Below, piece after piece: positions 2,285-64,000 of a DNA stretch of 64,000 nt; position 1 is the first letter of the stretch, and each line of letters opens with the position of its first letter. Below the pieces are notes generated by a model. That model was not told where the DNA came from. It saw only the letters and a list, made by a program, of their open reading frames with translations, and did no database searches. Origin of the DNA: Geosiphon pyriformis (taxonomy: Eukaryota; Glomeromycota; Glomeromycetes; Archaeosporales; Geosiphonaceae). The stretch spans positions 4,223 through 68,222 of the forward strand of contig JAAOMT010000770.1 in NCBI GenBank assembly GCA_016748015.1, given 5' to 3'. The translations under genes were made by a program, and so were the position numbers.

Positions 2285-4920
2285 AATTTTTTTTTTTATT
2301 ACAAGTTTTATAAGTAAAGTCCAACTGCTATTTAGTACATAGAACCAAACCAAGTGGAACCAATTAAATACAGCTTATGCACAAACTACATGTGGCCAGC
2401 CACTCAGGCCAGACAAGACAACACTACACACCTATGATAATGAAAGCATCACCATCCAAACCAGAAAAAAAATGACACAATTTGCACCTACCAAACCTAA
2501 CAGCAAAAGATTTTAAAACACCAAGCATATAAACAACACCAGCTGACAATGGAGAAACCATACTGCTGGCCAAGCCAGAAACCATACTATTATCCCTAAC
2601 TAAGCCAGCCTTCTCTATTTCTGCTCTATGCTTGGCTTTAACAGCCCATATTCAAATGCACTACAACTCTACTACAAATCTGACATATTCCACAAGGGTC
2701 TGAACAGCTTTCTTCTTTCTCTCAAAAACTGAAACAGCTTTGGCATACCAACCTTTCATTACAAAACTCTTGCACACTGCCATATAAAGATTTACATCCA
2801 AAGAATACAATGAGAGTAAGAGCAAAATAGCAAATAAAAACGCACTTGAAAGACTAGATATCAACATCTATTTCTCAGCAGCTTCAACTAAAATGTTCCC
2901 ATGGAGACCAGAGTCACCAGAACAAGTAAAAGCATGATCAAAGAACTCTATCTTACCACACAGCAAACACAAAACACCAGGATAACCTCTGTTATACAAT
3001 CTCTTTCTAACTACAACTAACAGTTGTTTATATACAGTCTTTATCAAATATGTGTGTAAATTGGCCGACTTCCTATTGGTAAACCCAGAAAACATGTGTA
3101 AATCAGGATGCCAAATTGTTGCAGTAGCATCCCAATCTATATCCTTAACTATAACATTTGGAACTATATCAAAACTTAGACCAGCTTCCCAATAGACACA
3201 GCATATTGATTGGTGTAAGTCTCTAGCAAAATGACAAACATTGCCAGATATGGCAGTCTTCTCAGTGACCAAAAACCTCTCTCAGATTTTAACTGGCAAA
3301 GAAAAAGATGAGGAAATAGTCTTACTAGCCAGCACATCAGTCTTTACATTGCCTAACACATCTGAATGTCCTTTAATCTTTACCCACTTAATTGAAATAT
3401 TCTTGTCTCTAAGAAGATTGACAATTTGCAATCTTTCAATCCAACAATGGTTATGAAAGTCAAGTGTAGTTGAAGAAGCCTCAGAAATGCAGGCATCAAT
3501 TGCAGATTGACTATTTGAGTACAAAACCACTGAGCAAAAAGATGGAACACACTTCAAAGCCAACACCATAGCTTGCAGTTCAGTTAACATAGAAGACAAA
3601 AGTTCAGTAATCTTAATTTCAATGTCTGTGTTCACAGCTAGAAAGTATGTAGCTGCTCCATCTGCTGCCTTAACAGAACTAGTACCTCTCAAGGACTCAT
3701 CTGTATAAACTTCAATGCAATCAGACCACACCTTTAGTAAACTATTACAAATTTCAGAGAACTTATTAGAATCCAAAATACTCAGCACATCTTTCTTAGT
3801 AGCAGTAGCAGCTTCAACCTTTAAAGAAACAGAATTGTTCATAAAATCAGACATCAAAGAAAACCAGTGAGGCACAGGACTCCTTGGGTCTAATTGTTTC
3901 CAACACCAAAATGTTTTCTATTCCATTACTCTTTCTTTTTTATCAAGAATTCTGTTACCAAAAGCAACACCAAAATGCTTCAATGAAAAAATAGACTTGT
4001 AATACAAAGACTAACTCGAAATGCCAGACATTGGAAAATCACCAGACTCATGAAAGACACAAGGTAAATTGTTTGCCAAAAATAGCTCATTCTCCAAAAA
4101 AATTTTCACTATCTCAGCCAAAAAATTGTTTACAGAATTGACATGCAACTTAAAAAAAAATTGCAAAGGATTCAGAGGAGATCATCCCAAAACTTGCAAA
4201 TCCAAAAATCTATGATTAAATAAACCCCCAAAAATGCCATGTTCATTAGAAAATAAAATCAGTAAAGCCAGTTTTCCTTCAGACTGTACTTGCTCAAAGG
4301 GCTTCAAACCATATAAAGAAGAATGGTACAAGACCTTACTGAAAAAGTCATATAGTAAACCAGCTTTGGCTCTAAGATCTTTTCTAACCATGATATCCCA
4401 CTTATGACACACATCTAAAATAACAAAACTGAACTGTGTACGATAGCTAACAATAGATTGCAAAACTACTAAAACCAAATAACAGAATTGTTTGTCTGTA
4501 ATAGCTTTTCTCAACACTATATTAGAAAAAAACCTAACATCCTTATGGGCATGAGCCAAACTGGGCTTAAAGAGACCCTCAGTTAAGAGAAAAATATCCA
4601 AATATCAGTGTGATTCACCCTTTTTAGTAATTAAAATCGGCAAACCATTAATTAATAGCAAAGCATTCTTAACTCTCTGATTGATAGGAATTGCCACTGT
4701 CTTATTATTATTAATTAAGATATTATTGATCACAAAAAACTCACTTGCAATGTTTAAAATATACTGCATAGATGCTTAACTACTTCCGACCCAAATTGTA
4801 TCATCAACAAAAGCACCTGCAGCCAAAAAAAAAGTTTTTTCTCCACTCACTTCAATTTTGCCAGACTTTGCTACAAACTTAGAATCAATTCTATATTCAC
4901 ATAAGCATTCATGCCTTTTT
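2285..4920 (-). mobile_element. 5'-truncated LINE (non-LTR retrotransposon) with RT end, RNase H and zinc-knuckle C-terminus, decayed
   Basis: Read on the minus strand in one continuous frame, the element starts inside the reverse transcriptase. The catalytic signature AFVDDTIWVGSS lies at about 4778-4814. RT thumb/connection sequence follows (4600-4180), then an RNase H domain at 3875-3285 with the expected order YTDES, TELQAMVLAL, SNSQSAID and KGHSD, then a C-terminal cysteine/histidine motif (CLLCG..H..C, near 2960-2910), ending at TAG 2424-2426. The 3' end carries an A-rich tail (plus-strand T run at about 2287-2297). There are eight premature in-frame stops (4776, 4182, 4011, 3918, 3282, 2868, 2661, 2655) but no frameshift that I could find. 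The 5' truncation near 4920 is typical of incomplete LINE insertion. The wording matches the LINE family I know from Rhizophagus-type fungi. Not mobile itself. Confidence 0.88.
3285..3890 (-). pseudogene. RNase H domain segment of the LINE ORF
   Basis: This is the best preserved uninterrupted part of the LINE polyprotein, about 200 codons between stops at 3918 and 3282. The catalytic acidic residues are visible: Asp in YTDESLRG, Glu in TELQAMVLALK, Asp in SNSQSAIDAC, and Asp in the final block KGHSDVLGNVKTDVLA. In the family this domain removes RNA from the RNA:DNA hybrid during target-primed reverse transcription. No start codon of its own is expected, because it is an internal part of a longer polyprotein. 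Confidence 0.85.
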
Positions 4921-35609: not shown

Positions 35610-36146
35610 TTAATTTTCTTCATTAAAACCTGCGGCAGTAAGGCCAGAATTCTGTGAAGCAGTAGAAACCACTGTCGGAAAATATAATCGACAAAATTGA
35701 GTTAAAAAGTACGGATAAAACTGGCAATAATTATATGGACCGAAAGAAAATGACCAAATCCCGGGGAATCCAAAATCTGCGTAACGCCTGATAATAAACT
35801 GCCTGAATCGTCGAAAACCAATGAGTGCACCTCTGCGACGAACCGCCAATCTAGGCAAAATGCCAACCCGACGAACTCCAAAACCCAGTCTTCCGACTCC
35901 CATGTGACTAAAACGAATTGCTGCTCCTTCAACTTCAGCCTCAGAAACTTTAGTATCATTATCTAGGATTGATGATGCTTCAGTGGCGTCATATAATTCA
36001 TTATTTATATTTTCATTAGCCTCAAATTCTTCCGGAAACGTGATATCTTTCACCGTTTGAGAATTTGGGAAAGAGAAGGTGGATGAAATGATGACAATGG
36101 TAACCAAAAAAAATAAGAGGTAATTAAATCTAAGAGAGAAAATCAT
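35610..36146 (-). CDS. Candidate secreted protein with acidic pro-region and arginine-rich core
   Basis: An intact 178-residue frame with a clear N-terminal signal peptide (MIFSLRFNYLLFFLVTIVII, cleavage likely shortly after the SSTFSF that follows). Residues 34-73 hold 13 Asp/Glu and two Lys (EEFEANENINNE, SEAEVEG). Residues 78-121 hold 13 Arg and no Lys, spaced among Gly, Val, Leu and Phe (RLGFGVRRVGILPRLAVRRR). The remainder is rich in Phe, Tyr and Pro with two Cys (GPYNYCQFYPYF, QFCRLYF). The charge-balanced order, acidic then cationic, recalls precursors of cationic peptides, but no family is recognised. No dibasic Lys-Arg site is present between the parts. Antisense frames exist but have no signal peptide. 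Confidence 0.6.
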   Translation of the reverse strand: MIFSLRFNYLLFFLVTIVIISSTFSFPNSQTVKDITFPEEFEANENINNELYDATEASSILDNDTKVSEAEVEGAAIRFSHMGVGRLGFGVRRVGILPRLAVRRRGALIGFRRFRQFIIRRYADFGFPGIWSFSFGPYNYCQFYPYFLTQFCRLYFPTVVSTASQNSGLTAAGFNEEN

Positions 36147-37134
36147 TTTTTATGAAAAAAGTTATTTAAATATTTGTCTTGATTATTTGATTTTTTTTTT
36201 TGTCAACTTGTTAGAAAAATAGAATGGTTTATGACTGGTTTTTATGGCTTTTCTCTACAGTTGTAGGCTGGTGTGGATTCATTCTTGCTAGTGATTGGAA
36301 AAATTAATGAACGTTTTTGTTAACAATTTTGATATATTATTCGTTACGCCTAACGAGTTTTATATCTTGGAGAATTGTTTACTTTTTTCTATTTTTTCTC
36401 AGGTATCTGATATATCCAAGATTTATTGGAGATGAAAAAATTCAAAACGTCGTTTAAAAATGATTTTGTTGCCCAATTTTTTATTAATCTTCGTATTTAG
36501 GCGATTTAGAACTCTATTATAAATTATCTCACTACTCTTCTCTAAAAGCAATTAGAAACTATATGACGTTTTTTGATCTCGATGATTTATGAAAACGTTC
36601 AATTATTACATTTATCCTCAATTTTAAGAAAAATTTTAAATTTTTTTTATTAAACAATACGGAAATAGTATAACCAATCACCCAATAAATCACAACAACC
36701 AATAAAAATATCATTTAAAAAATTTTTGTAATACGGCGAAAGATTAATAACGATCATGAGTACACTCTTTTGGGTATGATCACGCACATTTACCATTTTT
36801 GATCATAGAATTCCAAAATATGTTTGCAGAGTTTGACTATAAGATCAACGATTTGCTTTGACTTTAACTTTTTTTACGAAAAGTGAATCCTTATTGAAAA
36901 GTTTCTTGCAGCAGTCAAATTTTTTTTATGGTTACCTATCGATTCTTGGCCCAATAATATCCCTTATAATTAATAATTTTCCTTCAATTAAAGCAACATT
37001 TTAATAAAGTTAGGCATTTTGGGTTTAAATCTAATTCTTATTTGCATGACTGTACTATTGATTTCATTTTTCTAATCTCTTCTTGTTACTGAAAACTTAA
37101 TATACTATAAAAATATTTTATAAAAAATTTCAGA
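36147..37134. other. Intergenic
   Basis: No supported frame; presumed promoter of the secreted-protein gene lies at 36147-36300. Confidence 0.4.
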
Positions 37135-42175: not shown

Positions 42176-44302
42176 TTAACTCATCCTTTTTATTTGCATA
42201 AACAAATATTTTGTTTGAAAAAGTTGGTATGTTTTTAGCTTGAGAATACAATCGGAGGAACTTTAGTCCATTTGCCATATACATCCCCTAGAAAAAAGTC
42301 ATTAAACACTTTTTATTTTATAATATTATGAATGCTAAATAATAATTAATATCTAGTGGGTTCGTCATGATTCCTGAATGGATTTCCCATTCTTGCAAAA
42401 CCACAAATAATTTGCGAAAATTGATTGGCCACAGATTTTCCATTTCCATATTCTTAATTGAATTGAATTGGGAAATTGTGCAGGCCAATTTGAATGATCA
42501 AAATTTCGTCATTTTTGGCAATATGAATCAGAGTATTCTCATGTTAAAACATAAATAATAGAAAAATTAAATTTATGGGTAAATTTATAATTTTTTCCAA
42601 AAGTTTTATATAATAAATTTTGGACATATAATAGATTTAAAATATTTTTTTACTGATTTGTTTTTTTTAAAGTTCAATAAATTTTTATTTTTAATAACTA
42701 AAAATTCATTTTGTTTTTTAAAAATTTATTGAACCAATTGTTGTAAACTTAAATTCTTATTTGTAAATACTTGAATGGTCATTTTTATGAAATGATTTGT
42801 GATTATTTTTTGTTTTTTATTTGTTTTGTAAATATTGAGTTGATTTTTTTATTATATCTTATTGTTTTGTAAAATATTTTTGTTTTTCTGATATTCATTT
42901 TGAACAATTGTATTATCTCTTTATATAATGTATTATAAAAGAACCAATCATTAGTTACTTGAGTTTAGTCCATTCACATGACTTGATTATATGAATGACT
43001 TTGATGAAAAAATCTCAAGTTTGTTTCTGTAACAATCTTGTTATCCCACTTCTATTTAATCATCACGATTTGACATTGCTTACATAATTATTATCCTTAA
43101 CTTATTAGATGTATGACTTGCTCTTTATGATTATCGAAAAAATGATTACTATTTGATAAAACGCAAATTTTGAGAGAATAATTTTTAATCCGTAATATTA
43201 TAATACTCATTCGCTTATTCATATTCACAAAGAAGAGTATATCTTACAATCTAATAACTCGTCCTAGATCAGAAGCCAGGTTTTGAGTTCGCTTTTATAT
43301 TCCGTTTCAAGCATCAAACTCGGCTTACCCCGTTTTTCAAACTTTTATTGAAATTGAGGGTTGTCATATCTTTTCAAGGAAAATCTTGTTCAGTTTTAGA
43401 TGGTCGCTGATCAGAGGAGCTCTTGAATATCTACTTCACATGGACAAACACGAACTTTGAGAATGGAAACTAAACTCCAAATAATCATTAGTCGAAAAGC
43501 AATATCAAGTAATGGGGATACACATCGCATGCAGATGTTATGGATTCACAATTTTCCGAACAATTCTCCTTGATCGTCAAAACTTCAAAGATGTTCCGTA
43601 CCAATACTTTCAACAAAATGTTATCATATATCAATTTTGAAGATCTAGATTGGAGGTGCCAATTCTTAAGACCGAAAATTCTCTTTTGTAAAGTTTACCC
43701 TTTTATAACGAATGGAACAATCGTTTAAGACGATTTTATAATTAGCGATATTGAAGATCTTTACTCTCAAGACGAAATATTCTGATTTCCGGAGAATCTC
43801 TTTCTCACACTTTTAACACACAAACAAAAGAAATTTCATCGTCGATGAACCCTATCTCTACAAGCAATGATATAACTCATAATAACCAAGATATTACTCT
43901 ATTGGTTATCAGTCTTTTTTATTAAGGCAAGAGTAAAGAGCTCAATTGGTGGCCTCGTTCACAAACCCTAATTTCCAATTACAAAACCTCCGTTGATATT
44001 TATATATTTACCGAGTTTTTAACTTTCTCACTTAGTTTAACTTTTTGTGTTCTGCTCGACGGAGACTGAGGGTTTTTTTTATATTTAAATCTAGGTTTGA
44101 TACCTTGACTCACAAAAACCGTCTTCAATACCCCATCTCATTTTTCCGCGTAAAAATTTAGCCATTTATTCTTTTGCTATTTTAAAGAAATACCCTTTTG
44201 ACCAGGAGTCAAAATTAAAAGGTTAATCAAAAAGTCGAAGCATTTTCTCATAATTTTCTTAGGCCTCTCTCATTAGCGGCCAAGGTATCTTTGGTTGTTA
44301 AA
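42176..44302. other. Intergenic, with scattered coding-like debris
   Basis: 42367-42558 and 43540-43728 (plus) are open but carry no motif. 42590-43000 is AT-rich. 43980-44300 is the presumed promoter and leader of the first receptor gene. Nothing else recognised. Confidence 0.4.
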
Positions 44303-45750
44303 ATGAGCAACCCAGCTTTATATTTAGGTTATCCGGAGTGGTATGATCCAAAATCGTTAAAAGAGGCTGTTCAGGGCATGATTGCAATTTGCTCGTTTAG
44401 TACATTGAGTAATTTGGTTGTGATGGGAACTTTCATTTGGATATACTTTCACAAATATACCAATAAAACTACCGGGCGATTGGTGCTGAATTTGTTGTTT
44501 GCGGATTGGATTCAAAGTATTGGTTATATGATGAGCTATTATTGGATAAGTCAGGATGGTAATATCAAAAGTTATCCTAATTGTAATATTCAAGGGATGC
44601 TTATAAACATTGGTGGAGTAGCTTCTGGTAAGTAAGGATAGAAATACTATTGAACAAGAAAGCAGCTTGTGTGAGAATATTTCTGAAAGATGATCTAAAA
44701 TATTAACTTTGAATTCCAGGGTGTTGGGCGTTTACATTATGCCTTCAAACTTATTTGATGGTCGTGCACTCTTATGATCCCAAATGGCTCTTTACTGCTT
44801 CAATGATGATAATTTGGCCATTCAATATCATTTTATCAACAATTGGGACATTGATTCAAAACCCTCACATACCATTCTACAGCTCTGCTGGTGGTGCCTG
44901 GTGCTGGATTAATGCAGAATACAGCACCTATCGACTCATATTTCATTATGGGATAATCACTGTTTTAGCTGTCTCAATTTACTTGTTATATGGAAGGTTG
45001 ATTTACATTATTTACCGTCGCCAAGCTACGATAAGAACGGAAAAGAACCAGACATTAAAAAAGAATGGCATAAAACTTTTATTATACCCTGGAGCTCACT
45101 GTTTGATCACCTTACCATTGGCTTTGCGTAAGTCTAACCTCTTTTGATTTTTTTTATTAGAAGAAAATTCCTAATTGGTAAACTTTTTTTTTTATAGACC
45201 GATTAATGGAAAGTGGCGAAACACAGACATCATTTTCATTGTGAGTGACTCAATAAATTTTTCATGTTTAATTATTTCGATTTAGGAAAATTGTCATTGA
45301 CTCTATAATTTCTTTATTCACATAAATTCCAGCCTTATCATAGCTGGTTGCATAGCGGCTTCATCTGGACTCGTAAACAGTTTAATTTACGGAATGACGC
45401 GTAGTATGCCATCCACTAAACCAATATTTGAAATCGTTCCAAAATTCAACATTCGTGTCCGAAATGTTCAGATTGCTCCATCAGCCATTCGTACCGTTTC
45501 CATCTCCAGCAACGCGAGTGACATGAAACCACTAAATATGGCTATTAACATGCCGCCCCATACTGCCGAAAACCAGTCTCACCAACAACGAATGCAATAT
45601 AGGGGTTCAAATATTGGAGGAGGAGTACACGGGCATAAAGGACCCGTTACGACAGATTTGATGGCGAACAGGGAAACATTGTTTGAGGGCCTAACCTATT
45701 ATGAGAATATCGAAAGTATGGAACCGTTGCGTCCACGTGTTGAATATTAA
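44303..45750 (+). CDS. Seven-transmembrane receptor, cAMP-receptor/Git3-like, copy 1
   Basis: Exons 44303-44627, 44720-45127, 45198-45240 and 45333-45750 (phases 1, 1, 2) give 397 residues. Short N-terminus, TM1 (MIAICSFSTLSNLVVMGTFI), TM2 (LVLNLLFADWIQSIGYMMSY), a Cys before TM3 (YPNCNIQGMLINIGGVASG), TM3 after the first intron, TM4, an ECL2 with AGGAWCWI whose Cys can pair with the first, TM5 (FHYGIITVLAVSIYLLYGRL), a basic third loop (YIIYRRQATIRTEKNQ), TM6, the 43-nt exon for the outer loop, and TM7 (AGCIAASSGLVNSLIYGMTR). A Ser/Thr/Gln-rich cytoplasmic tail of about 110 residues follows. The layout fits the fungal/slime-mould class coupled to heterotrimeric G proteins. The ligand is unknown. 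The start is the ATG at 44303. Confidence 0.87.
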
Positions 45751-51629: not shown

Positions 51630-52300
51630 TTGATACAGATTTACAAAGAATAATTGATATCCTATTTAGATGTAGATTAATCGCTAAGTATTACTATAAA
51701 GTCATTTGATTCCCAAAGATAACTTTTCTATAATTGTAACTGGTCATAGTATTGGAGGTGGTAAGTGATGCTCTCACAATTTTGAAATTTTATTCTTTTT
51801 CATAGCATATGCCATGAGATTGGCAATGCTGATTTTAGGGACAATTAAAAACAGTTGTTACATTTGAACAGCCAAGGATAGGAAATGAGTCTTATGCTAA
51901 AATATATATCATCAGTGATACTAATCTTTCGTGTGACCAATACCAATGACTATATTCCGCAGTTTCTTAAAAAATCTCAATCTGGTATCGAATACGTGCA
52001 TCATGAAACTGAATACTGAATTGTTGAAGATTGTGAGTGCAATCACGAAACAGAACAAAAGTAAAGAAAATTATCAGGCGTAAAAATGTTCTGGATCTGC
52101 AAAAAAGTCAAAAAAAGCTGTAGAAAATAAAGCAAGTATTGAATCTTTTAAGTTATGTGATAAATTAAATTTGACTTTACTTTGTAAATTTAGAAATGCA
52201 ACTCTGGAACAGATGGACTGGTTGTCAATGTTCACCATGGACCATATTTTGGAGTTATTTTTGGTCAATGTGAAGATTTTTTTGATATGACAAAATAAAT
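51630..52300 (+). pseudogene. Class-3 (triacylglycerol) lipase relic
   Basis: The nucleophile elbow is intact: SIIVTGHSIGG ends the segment at 51760, a 45-bp intron (gtaagt..catag, 51761-51805) still splices in phase, and AYAMRLAMLILG follows. Next come VVTFEQPRIGNESYAK (expected TFGQPRVGN), RVTNTNDYIPQFL with the catalytic-Asp region, VHHETEY carrying the His region, EDCECNHETEQ, and after about 100 disrupted bases the C-terminal GTDGLVVNVHHGPYFGVIFG ending at TAA near 52300. A stop replaces the Trp expected after HHETEY, and frames shift near 51840-51930. In the family these are secreted alpha/beta hydrolases acting on triglycerides. Confidence 0.8.
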
Positions 52301-55903: not shown

Positions 55904-56544
55904 TAATAACCTTTCATGGGGTTAAAGCTTCTGTCGTTCAGTTTAATAAAAAAAAATAATTACACCGAATATGTTAGGTTCATACCCCTCCCCCTATAAA
56001 ATAATTGTGATCCACTTCACCATTTTCCAAAATTAGAATCGATTTCTTTCATTCCAGAGTGAAGGCTGTCTAATCAAAATTGCTTGAGTAATGTTTTTGA
56101 GAGAGATTAGGAAAAAAACTTAATAAATTCCATATCCGGAGAAACCTTTTCTAAGGGGAAAAATCTCTATAATTGCATTTTTGTCAAATAAATCTTTCTC
56201 GAGATCCATATTCCATTTGAAACTATATATATATATATATAGAGAGCTTTGCCAGTCACTGGTTAACGTTTCAAAAAAGTAAATAGGACTCCGTATTAAT
56301 TTTAATGCCATAAACCAATTTTTCAACGCCCTGCACTTGTTTCTTCTTTTCAAATAATACCTTTGAATAGGGGAACGATTGACGGTTAACATTAAAACTT
56401 TAATTTCTCGTATTGATATTTGAAAATTTGTTTTTGTGCTTTTTTTGAAAAAATAAAAACACCTTTGAAAAAGTATTTAGAGCTAGGGTGTATATAAAAA
56501 ATAACTTCATAAAATCTCCCTTCAAAAATCCTATTTTTTTTTTA
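55904..56544. other. Intergenic, promoter side of receptor copy 2
   Basis: Includes an AT run followed by AGAGAG near 56225-56247. No supported coding sequence; the minus-strand frame 56120-56392 has no motif. Confidence 0.4.
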
Positions 56545-57859
56545 ATGGAAGTAATGGGTTATTATGTGTCCGAGCATGATTTAGTCCAAGGTCAAGTAGC
56601 CGTTTGGATATTTGGTACACTTAGTAATCTCGTCACTACTGGAATACTGTTTTGGATTTGTGCCAAAACATCAACAAATAAGATGATAGGTCGTCTTGTT
56701 GTAAATTTATTAATTTCGGATTGGGTACAAAGTTTTGGCTTTGTAATGAGCTCTAATTGGATTTTTCAAGGTGGTATTTATGAAGGGTTTTTTTGTACTA
56801 TACAAGGAATGTTTTTGAATCTCGGTGACGTGGCTTCTGGTGAGCTATTTCAACTTTTCTCCATAAAAAAAAACTATTATTCTTTGATATTTCATCAGGC
56901 TGAGAATAAAATATCTCTTTTTGTTTTGTTTTGTTTTGTTTTTTCATTTTTTGTCAGGATGCTGGGCAATGTCAATATGTATTCATACATATCTTTTAGT
57001 CGTACATTCTTATGAATCAAAGTATCATCTAGTGATATCGATGGCAGTAATTTGGCCAGCAAATTTACTCATGATATTCATTGGACACGCTATACAAACG
57101 AAAAAAAATGGTTCATTTTGGGCACCAGCGGGAGGAGCTTGGTGTTGGATATCAATCAACTATCCTTTATATCGTATACTCTTTCATTATGGTATAATTG
57201 TATTACTGGCAGTTTTCATGGTTGGTATGTACGCAGTAATGTATATGTCATTATGGCGCCGACAAAATACTACCCAGCGGGAAGCTTCAAGACAAGTTCT
57301 CCAGAGAACTAGCAAGAAACTTGTATACTACCCAGTAGCATATGTTATTCTTGTTTTCCCTTTGGCTTTTCGTAAGTGTGATCAATCCAATTTAAATTTT
57401 TAATTTAACAATAATTTTTTATTATCTGACCAATATTTCTTTATTCTCTATATCTATATATGGTAGAACGTTTTTTGGCCTTTGGCGGTATACAAATGCC
57501 ATTCCCATTGTAAGTATTCTAATTACTAAATTTTATTGATCTATAATTTTTTTTTCTCATTATAAATCCTTTCAATTCAACAACTTTTACCCAATATTTT
57601 TATATTTTATAGTCTCGTGGCTGCTGGATGTATATTCGCGTTATCTGGAATAGTTAACAGTATAATATACGGGTTTACAAGACACGTGGTAACAATCACG
57701 CCAAACATTTCATTTCGACAAGTACAAAAACGACCAATAAGCACTTCAAATGGCATCGATTCTTCAAAACCAATGAACACTTTTACTATTAGTGTGACAA
57801 CACAGACTGAAACTCGACTTTCACATTGGAATCCGAATTTAAAAGAAGTAGAAATTTAG
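56545..57859 (+). CDS. Seven-transmembrane receptor, cAMP-receptor/Git3-like, copy 2
   Basis: Exons 56545-56839, 56958-57371, 57467-57509 and 57613-57859 (phases 1, 1, 2; third exon 43 nt, as in copy 1) give 332 residues. TM1 (AVWIFGTLSNLVTTGILFWI), TM2 (RLVVNLLISDWVQSFGFVMS), the TM3 cysteine (EGFFCTIQGMFLNLGDVASG), VVHSYESKYHLVISMAVIWP (TM4), ECL2 with APAGGAWCWIS, TM5 (LFHYGIIVLLAVFMVGMYAV), basic loop (SLWRRQNTTQREASRQ), TM6 (VAYVILVFPLAFRQRF) and TM7 (AGCIFALSGIVNSIIYGFTR). The tail is only about 60 residues, shorter than in copies 1 and 3. ATG 56545 and ATG 56554 are both possible starts. A longer frame upstream lacks an ATG. Confidence 0.87.
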
Positions 57860-61626: not shown

Positions 61627-62937
61627 TTAAGATTTAAAAACTGATAATCTTACATTAGAATCAATTTGAATCTTCACACATTCATGTTTACATTTCATTT
61701 CTTTATCGGAATTCTCCGCGTCATTTTTGGAGACTGATTGTTGTGTATTCGATTTTGTTTCTCTAGCGTCAATTTTTGAAACATTTTTAATGCTGACTGT
61801 GGTCTTGGCTTTTGAATCTTCATGAGTATTACTGCTGTTTAGACGATTTCTTATTCTTGGGACTATTTCGCTTACAGATTTGATTGATACTATATTTCTT
61901 GTGAAACCATAAATTATGCTGTTCACCGTGCCAGCCGAAGCGAGAAGACAGCCGCTCACAATAGTGCTGATTTATAGAATTTTACAAAGAAAAAATTAAT
62001 GATATGCTTTTTGTAAGCTAAACTAAAAAAAAACTCACATTGAATGATGCTTACTATGAAAATGGGAAATCTGGACCTTTAGCAATAACAGTGAAACGTT
62101 CTATGAATAAAAAAATATTAAATTTCAATCTCAAAAGTACAAATCTTAAAAAATAGTTTAGATACTCACGTAAGGCTAATGGAAATACGATTATAATGTA
62201 AACACCAGGATAATAAATCAATTTTCGTCTAACACGTTGTAAAACTTTTTTTGTATTATCCATTCTCATTACTCCCTGACGACGATATACTTTGATGAAC
62301 ATGAGCGAATACAAAACTATCATGAAGACTGCCAGGAATGCAATGATTGCATAATGAAAAAGAATTCGATATGAAGCATAACTTTCACTGATCCAGCACC
62401 AAGAGCCTGTCGCGGAACCATAAAATGGAACCCCATTTTTCTGTAATGCCAATCCTATGAGGCCAAAAGCAAGACTTATCGACCAAATTAAAGCGGCACA
62501 AACTCGAACATACCATTCAGGTTCAAATGAATGAACAACTACCATATATGTATGTAAACAAATAGCAGTTGCCCAAAATCCTGAAAAAAAAAAATTTGAA
62601 CTCTGATATAACTTATATTTCAAAAAGATTAAAAATCATGCGTTTCAAATTATAAATTTTTTTCACCTGAACCTATATCACCCAGATTAATCAAAATCCC
62701 TTGAGTCTCACAATATGAGTCTGATATCAGGTGCCCATGTGCCCACCATCTATATGTCATCATAAATCCAATGCTTTGAATCCAGTCTGAGAATAGCAAA
62801 TTCATCACTAGACGCGTTACCGTCTTGTTTGAAGTAGTTTGTCTCCAAATCCAGAGAAGCATTCCAGTCGTAGCGAAATTACTTATGGTACTAAAGATGC
62901 ACATTGCAATCATGCCTTTTTGTTCTTTTGTTGACAT
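61627..62937 (-). CDS. Seven-transmembrane receptor, cAMP-receptor/Git3-like, copy 3
   Basis: Minus-strand exons 62937-62667, 62580-62170, 62100-62055 and 61966-61627 (phases 1, 1, 2; third exon 46 nt) give 355 residues. TM1 (MIAMCIFSTISNFATTGMLL), TM2 (LVMNLLFSDWIQSIGFMMTY), Cys before TM3 (SDSYCETQGILINLGDIGSG), TM3/TM4 (VVVHSFEPEWYVRVCAALIW), ECL2 with GSATGSWCWIS, TM5 (LFHYAIIAFLAVFMIVLYSL), basic loop (KVYRRQGVMRMDNTKK), TM6 (PGVYIIIVFPLALRQRF) and TM7 (SGCLLASAGTVNSIIYGFTR). The tail of about 85 residues is Lys/Ser/Asn-rich. A gtaaga inside the last codons (after IQIDSN) might be a donor to a further exon, so the extreme C-terminus is uncertain. Confidence 0.86.
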
Positions 62938-64000
62938 TTTATATTATGAGGAAATACAAATTATTATTATTTTGTTTTGAAGTTTTAATCTAATGCCCTT
63001 TATTATCTGGTTTTTAGGAAATTCTGAAAATTAAAAAATTACAAGGATTAAAAGCATAACATGAAATTCTTTGTGAAAAAAAAAAAAACTGATAATTTCT
63101 TGTTAAAATGATTCAAGTTAGGGAATATATACGCGCGAAAAAGATTGAAAATTCCTTTTTTGCTTTGTTACACTGTTGATCAACATACGGCGTATAAATA
63201 GATAAAAAAATTTATTTATACATTTACTAATATAAAGAAACGTGGCTGAGAAAGCTGTTCAACGATATGATTAAAAAAAAAAAAACATTTCCAATTAAAT
63301 ATTAGGTTTGAAAAACTGAGACAGTTTTCTTTAATCTGACCCCTAGCACCTGAAAAACATCATGAAGTCAAAATCTTTAAAGAGCACAAGGGATGGAAGA
63401 CAGGTAACTTGAAAATTTATTCTTAACAAAATTTTTTTTTAGATTTGGTCAACGTCATGAAATAATGAAAATCTGTTTATCTGTTTCCCCCAGCTGTTAA
63501 TTAAGTCGGATAAATTAGAATCCTTGCCAAGATTTTACCTCATTCATCACCATTGATACAACTCATTCATTTTTATTTAAACTAAAATCTAATTAAAATT
63601 TCTCATATCTCGTTCGCAAATTAAAAAGTTACTTTCATAACTTCAACCACATCGAATTTCAAAAAAAATTGAAATTTGAAGTTATGATTGTTTGTCTTAT
63701 TATAAACCAAAAAAAATTATGACTGTTTCGCAAGATATTTCCCCGAATAGCAATTTCACGTCATCTTCATTTCATAATTTTAAATAATATAGTTTGAGTA
63801 ATAATTGCGGATAAACTATGACTAATTCTAATACATGTGCGCCTACATGTACATGTACATTAATTAAAGTGCATTTCGTTTTCCCACTTGCAGTTTTAAT
63901 AAAATATTAATATAAAGGACCTTTTTGAAAGAATATGGTTTGAATTTTTGAATACTATCATAACCATGCCTTCACTTTTAAATTCACTAGTAATAGCATT
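62938..64000. other. Intergenic to window end
   Basis: Promoter side of receptor copy 3. Contains short palindromic ACATGTACATGTACAT near 63846-63861. Short ATG frames (for example at 63718) end within about 25 codons. Nothing supported. Confidence 0.4.

What the first reader, a model, noticed from the sequence alone, without database searches (positions are those of the whole stretch)
35610..36146. Secreted protein with 13 acidic residues followed by 13 arginines
After a signal peptide, residues 34-73 carry 13 Asp/Glu and residues 78-121 carry 13 Arg with no Lys, followed by an aromatic tail with two Cys. An acidic pro-region that neutralises a cationic segment is a known design of cationic peptide precursors. 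Exclusive use of Arg in an AT-rich genome, where AAA Lys codons would be favoured, suggests selection. No family recognised.
Basis: partly seen in the sequence, partly recalled or inferred. Interest (0 to 1): 0.6.

Follow-up and report, generated by a model that had tools for sequence, protein, structure and literature searches.

The report
Secreted acidic-then-arginine fungal protein pair
A fungus that looks like an arbuscular-mycorrhizal relative carries two old copies of a gene for a secreted protein whose acidic first half precedes an arginine-only second half, and both copies have kept all 13 shared arginines, which makes it a credible but untested precursor of a cationic, possibly antimicrobial, peptide.

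Summary
Window 36146..35610 (minus strand) encodes an intact 178-aa protein: hydrophobic signal sequence, acidic segment (13 D/E), basic segment (13 Arg, no Lys), aromatic tail with two Cys. It is a gene, not a chance ORF: the genome holds one diverged paralogue (C104, 188 aa, ~59% identity, dS ~0.75) with the same order of parts. Purifying selection is clear (dN/dS 0.40 overall), strongest in the arginine core (0.14). All 13 arginines are conserved. The paralogue has 19 Arg and still no Lys in the block, and 16 acidic residues in front of it. Background ORFs use Lys more than Arg (R/(R+K) 0.375), and none of 39 shows the pattern. No relative was found in Pfam, NCBIfam, PDB, viral contigs, plasmids or prokaryote genomes; no fungal genome database was available, so novelty is unproven. 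Best explanation: a charge-balanced secreted precursor whose arginine-rich, probably helical part binds anionic surfaces, possibly as an antimicrobial. Release of the cationic part is not shown: no dibasic site lies at the acid/basic boundary, whereas four Arg-Arg sites inside the core are conserved, which keeps Kex2-cut short peptides as a serious rival. Expression, processing and activity are untested.

The parts
35610..36146 (-). Complete single-exon CDS, 178 aa (ATG at 36146, stop ends at 35610)
   Evidence: paralogue aligned along almost the whole length
36072..36146 (-). Signal sequence, residues 1-25 (...IISSTFS|FPNSQ; cleavage after Ser25 inferred from the -3/-1 rule)
   Evidence: sequence; dN/dS 0.11 for residues 1-26, conserved as ...IISSTLS|FPSSQ in the paralogue; single-sequence AlphaFold2 gives a helix at residues 2-23, pLDDT 69-81. 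No signal-peptide predictor was available.
35919..36071 (-). Acidic segment, residues 26-76 (13 D/E, no Arg)
   Evidence: 9 of 13 acidic residues identical in the paralogue, which has 16 and a 10-residue insertion carrying 3 of them
35781..35918 (-). Arginine segment, residues 77-122 (13 Arg, 0 Lys, 0 Asp/Glu)
   Evidence: 13 of 13 Arg identical in the paralogue, P = 1.2e-3 for that placement given 16 differences in 46 columns
35781..35873 (-). Conserved arginine core, residues 92-122 (RRVGI.PRLA.RRRGAL.GFRRFR.FI.RRY) with four conserved Arg-Arg sites; helix 97-124 in two low-confidence models
   Evidence: dN/dS 0.14
35667..35780 (-). Aromatic tail, residues 123-160, with Cys141 and Cys152 (PYNYC-x10-C), possibly one disulfide loop
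   Evidence: 10 of 11 Cys/Pro/Tyr conserved, P = 2e-3; dN/dS 0.46; disulfide inferred
35613..35666 (-). Unconstrained C-terminal end, residues 161-178
   Evidence: dN/dS above 1 with few sites

Best explanation
A secreted, charge-balanced precursor. Shown: the gene family, its order of parts, and selection to keep Arg in the core. Inferred: the signal sequence sends it into the secretory pathway; the acidic segment folds back on or masks the arginine segment inside the cell; outside, by proteolysis or by dissociation on contact with a strong polyanion, the arginine-rich, probably helical core binds anionic surfaces (bacterial envelopes, phospholipid, cell-wall polyanions or nucleic acid). The likeliest role is an antimicrobial or microbe-managing cationic peptide or protein. 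The tail with one possible disulfide may anchor or stabilise it.
For: Same order (signal, acidic, Arg-only, aromatic two-Cys tail) in both paralogues. All 13 Arg kept while synonymous sites diverged to dS ~0.75; six of the 13 conserved Arg positions use different Arg codons in the two copies. A neutral AT-biased simulation of this block keeps on average 3.6 and at most 11 of the 13 Arg in 20,000 runs. Both charges are higher in the paralogue: D/E 13 to 16, Arg 13 to 19. The window copy is exactly neutral after the signal. Both structure runs place one helix at residues 97-124, though at low confidence. A published predictor calls one third to one half of the non-CAZyme secretome of the glomeromycete R. 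irregularis candidate antimicrobials (PMC13127573), so the prior for such a role is not small.
Against: No recognisable cleavage site at the acidic/basic boundary. Hydrophobic moments of the core are not above shuffled sequence. The paralogue's charges do not cancel (net +9 after the signal), so strict neutralisation is not a shared property. With two sequences, the parallel rise in both charges is an anecdote. The models are of low confidence (mean pLDDT 51-52). No transcript, no peptide, no assay.
Confidence: 0.42

Rival explanations
1. Kex2-processed precursor of several short peptides: Golgi kexin cuts after the four conserved Arg-Arg sites and releases short hydrophobic peptides (VGI-x-PRLA-x, GAL-x-GF, FR-x-FI-x) and the two-Cys tail; the Arg serve mainly as cleavage sites.
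For: All four Arg-Arg sites are conserved. Kex2 sites in fungi are generally KR or RR, and R. irregularis has many Kex2-processed secreted proteins (PMC6339444; PMC5293756). The residues between the sites are well conserved (dN/dS 0.14 in the core).
Against: No repeated peptide motif: internal self-similarity is not above shuffled sequence (p = 0.70 and 0.33). Conserved single Arg outside dibasic sites (R78, R86, R99, R115) and extra single Arg in the paralogue are not needed for cutting. The sites are always RR, never the preferred KR.
Confidence: 0.22
2. An unprocessed secreted effector whose arginine segment acts as a nuclear-import or RNA/DNA-binding stretch in a partner's cells, with the acidic part as a solubility or interaction region.
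For: Arg-only basic stretch; secreted nuclear effectors are known in AM fungi: the SP7 family and GLOIN707/781/261 (PMC11333574; PMC11085264).
Against: No Lys-containing classical import signal. None of the hydrophilic imperfect repeats that define SP7-like proteins is present. The core is rich in Ile, Val, Leu and Phe, unlike an extended hydrophilic NLS.
Confidence: 0.18
3. A structural secreted protein of the fungal wall or spore that sticks to anionic polymers through Arg and aromatic residues, with no antimicrobial role.
For: Aromatic Tyr/Phe-rich two-Cys tail with conserved Pro, Tyr and Cys positions.
Against: The tail is less constrained than the Arg core (0.46 against 0.14); nothing points to a wall location.
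Confidence: 0.13
4. A chance open reading frame without function.
For: No transcript evidence; no family in any library searched.
Against: A paralogue with an intact frame, dN/dS 0.40, and differences by codon position of 51/38/68.
Confidence: 0.02

Closest known systems
Charge-neutralised cationic peptide precursors (mammalian defensins and cathelicidins; from general knowledge)
   Same: Signal sequence, acidic middle part, cationic C-terminal part.
   Different: No defensin cysteine pattern and no cathelin domain match in Pfam; no shared sequence; cleavage at the boundary not shown; an aromatic tail follows the cationic part.
KEX2-processed repeat proteins (KEPs) of fungi, PMC6339444
   Same: Signal sequence and several Arg-Arg sites.
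   Different: No internal repeats between the sites, which is a defining criterion.
SP7-like effectors of Glomeromycotina, PMC11333574
   Same: Small secreted protein in what appears to be the same fungal group.
   Different: No hydrophilic imperfect repeats; strongly hydrophobic and aromatic.
Candidate antimicrobial effectors of fungi (AMAPEC predictions), PMC13127573
   Same: Small secreted protein with charge and Cys features of the kind that predictor weighs.
   Different: The predictor could not be run here; no sequence relation tested.

Membership tests
Charge-neutralised cationic peptide precursor (a design, not a sequence family) | Signal sequence, then an anionic segment, then a cationic segment in one chain | tested here: met
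   both paralogues
Charge-neutralised cationic peptide precursor (a design, not a sequence family) | Net charge close to zero in the precursor | tested here: inconclusive
   window copy 0, paralogue +9 after the signal
Charge-neutralised cationic peptide precursor (a design, not a sequence family) | Proteolytic release of the cationic part | not testable with these tools
   no dibasic site at the boundary; needs mass spectrometry
Charge-neutralised cationic peptide precursor (a design, not a sequence family) | Amphipathic cationic helix or disulfide-rich cationic fold | tested here: inconclusive
   helix 97-124 in two low-confidence models; hydrophobic moment not above shuffled sequence
KEX2-processed repeat protein (KEP) | Signal peptide | tested here: met
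   sequence and conservation; no predictor was run
KEX2-processed repeat protein (KEP) | Repeated near-identical motifs separated by Kex2 sites | tested here: not met
   self-similarity not above shuffled sequence, p = 0.70 and 0.33
SP7-like effector | Series of hydrophilic imperfect repeats after the signal peptide | tested here: not met
   (arginine block only); the rest by inspection of the sequence
Any Pfam, NCBIfam or PDB family | Profile or sequence match | tested here: not met
   no match

The most novel reading that the evidence does not exclude
A new lineage-restricted family of arginine-only cationic peptides, delivered as self-masked acidic precursors, with which a symbiotic fungus controls bacteria living in or around it. 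This would parallel the way legumes manage rhizobia with NCR peptides, but with an unrelated sequence and no cysteine scaffold in the cationic part.
Probability: 0.12. Interest if true: 0.72.

Novelty: new member of a known kind. Interest (0 to 1): 0.38.

Why it matters
Very few secreted proteins of this fungal group have a known function. A two-gene family with an unusually clear, selected charge design gives a small, synthesisable candidate (the 46-residue arginine block) whose binding and antimicrobial activity can be tested directly, without having to transform the fungus.

Tried and rejected
Chance ORF: rejected by the paralogue and its purifying selection. Bacterial, viral or plasmid origin: no relative in viral contigs, GTDB genomes or plasmids. 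Larger family in the genome: only two members by full-length, paralogue and core-plus-tail queries. Amphipathic helix by hydrophobic moment: not above shuffles. Internal repeats: not above shuffles. Synteny between the two loci: only the gene itself matches convincingly. Fold search was not run because both models are of low confidence. The SSU family search failed on the server; a primer-site pattern search found the SSU instead. The sigma-70-type promoter scan is not meaningful for a fungus and gave chance numbers.

Full report
What is there. The finding's coordinates hold an ORF on the minus strand, 36146 to 35610, 178 aa, one exon. The composition is as described: 13 D/E in residues 27-76, 13 Arg and no Lys or D/E in residues 77-122, then an aromatic tail with Cys141 and Cys152. 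After the inferred signal cleavage (Ser25) the chain is exactly neutral: 14 R + 2 K against 16 D/E.

It is a gene. A protein search of the window's own genome (124.7 Mb, 406 contigs) finds exactly one other member, on contig C104 at 107597-108163, minus strand, 188 aa, 59% identical over 164 residues. Searches with the paralogue and with the core plus tail find nothing further. The tool warns that weak or masked matches may be missed. Nei-Gojobori counts give dS about 0.75, dN about 0.30 and dN/dS 0.40 overall; by part: signal 0.11, acidic segment 0.42, arginine core (92-122) 0.14, tail 0.46, last 18 residues above 1. Dissimilar flanks and the high dS point to an old duplication.

Selection for arginine. 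All 13 Arg of the window copy's basic block are Arg in the paralogue, although 16 of 46 residues in the block differ (P = 1.2e-3 for such placement); six of those 13 positions use different Arg codons in the two copies. The paralogue has six more Arg in the block and still no Lys. In 39 background ORFs from the same genome R/(R+K) is 0.375, and none has an acidic block followed by a Lys-free Arg block. A neutral AT-biased simulation keeps 3.6 of 13 Arg on average, at most 11. Some background ORFs may not be genes and the segment was chosen after inspection, so the probabilities are indicative; the paralogue comparison does not depend on them.

How it may work. The order signal - acidic - cationic is the layout of charge-balanced cationic peptide precursors, and both charges are higher in the paralogue (D/E 13 to 16, Arg 13 to 19). 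Strict neutrality is not kept there (+9). The boundary is conserved in sequence (SE-x-EV-x-G-x-AIR) but holds no dibasic site; the four conserved Arg-Arg sites lie inside the core. So either the acidic part masks the core without cleavage there, or another protease acts, or Kex2 cuts the core itself into short peptides. The absence of internal repeats speaks against a classical KEP (PMC6339444), and the conserved single Arg outside dibasic sites speak against Arg serving only as cleavage sites. Structure predictions from the single sequence are weak (mean pLDDT 51-52), but both place one helix at residues 97-124. The hydrophobic moment there is not above shuffled sequence, so a clean amphipathic helix is not shown.

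Relatives. No match in Pfam, NCBIfam, PDB sequences, viral contigs, GTDB genomes or plasmids. These libraries hold few fungal proteins apart from Pfam and PDB, so the family may well exist, unnamed, in other Glomeromycotina. That is the main gap.

Organism. The SSU rRNA gene on C320 matches the AML1 and AML2 primer sites with one mismatch each. Genome size and G+C (window 27.8%) fit Glomeromycotina as tabulated in PMC9453076. The primer sequences and their group specificity are from my own knowledge.

Verdict. A real, selected, two-member secreted protein family with a clear charge design. The precursor reading is plausible (0.42) but its key step, release or unmasking of the cationic part, is untested. 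Nothing here shows a new mechanism; it is best filed as a new member of a known kind of design, without membership of any named sequence family.

Noticed in passing
window 36576-36606: A 31-base stretch about 460 bases upstream of the ATG is 84% identical to one about 430 bases upstream of the paralogue's ATG (E 4e-4), the only clear non-coding similarity between the two loci; possibly a shared regulatory element, possibly chance.
   Followed up: partly
window 51851-52280; L004 1-1130: A Lipase (class 3) gene lies convergent, about 570 bases from the paralogue on C104, and lipase-like exon fragments also occur in the window 16 kb from this gene. Lipase_3 may simply be common in this genome.
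   Followed up: partly
window 44219-45750, 56449-57859, 61627-62943: Three similar seven-helix receptor-like genes (the first matches Pfam Dicty_CAR; the other two by likeness of sequence) within 19 kb: a local receptor cluster.
   Followed up: no
window 2868-3917 (minus): RNase H domain ORF with neighbouring frames that look like a decayed retroelement.
   Followed up: no
L013 5039-5313 (C285): An isolated 275-base LSU rRNA fragment outside an rRNA unit, probably a pseudogene.
   Followed up: no
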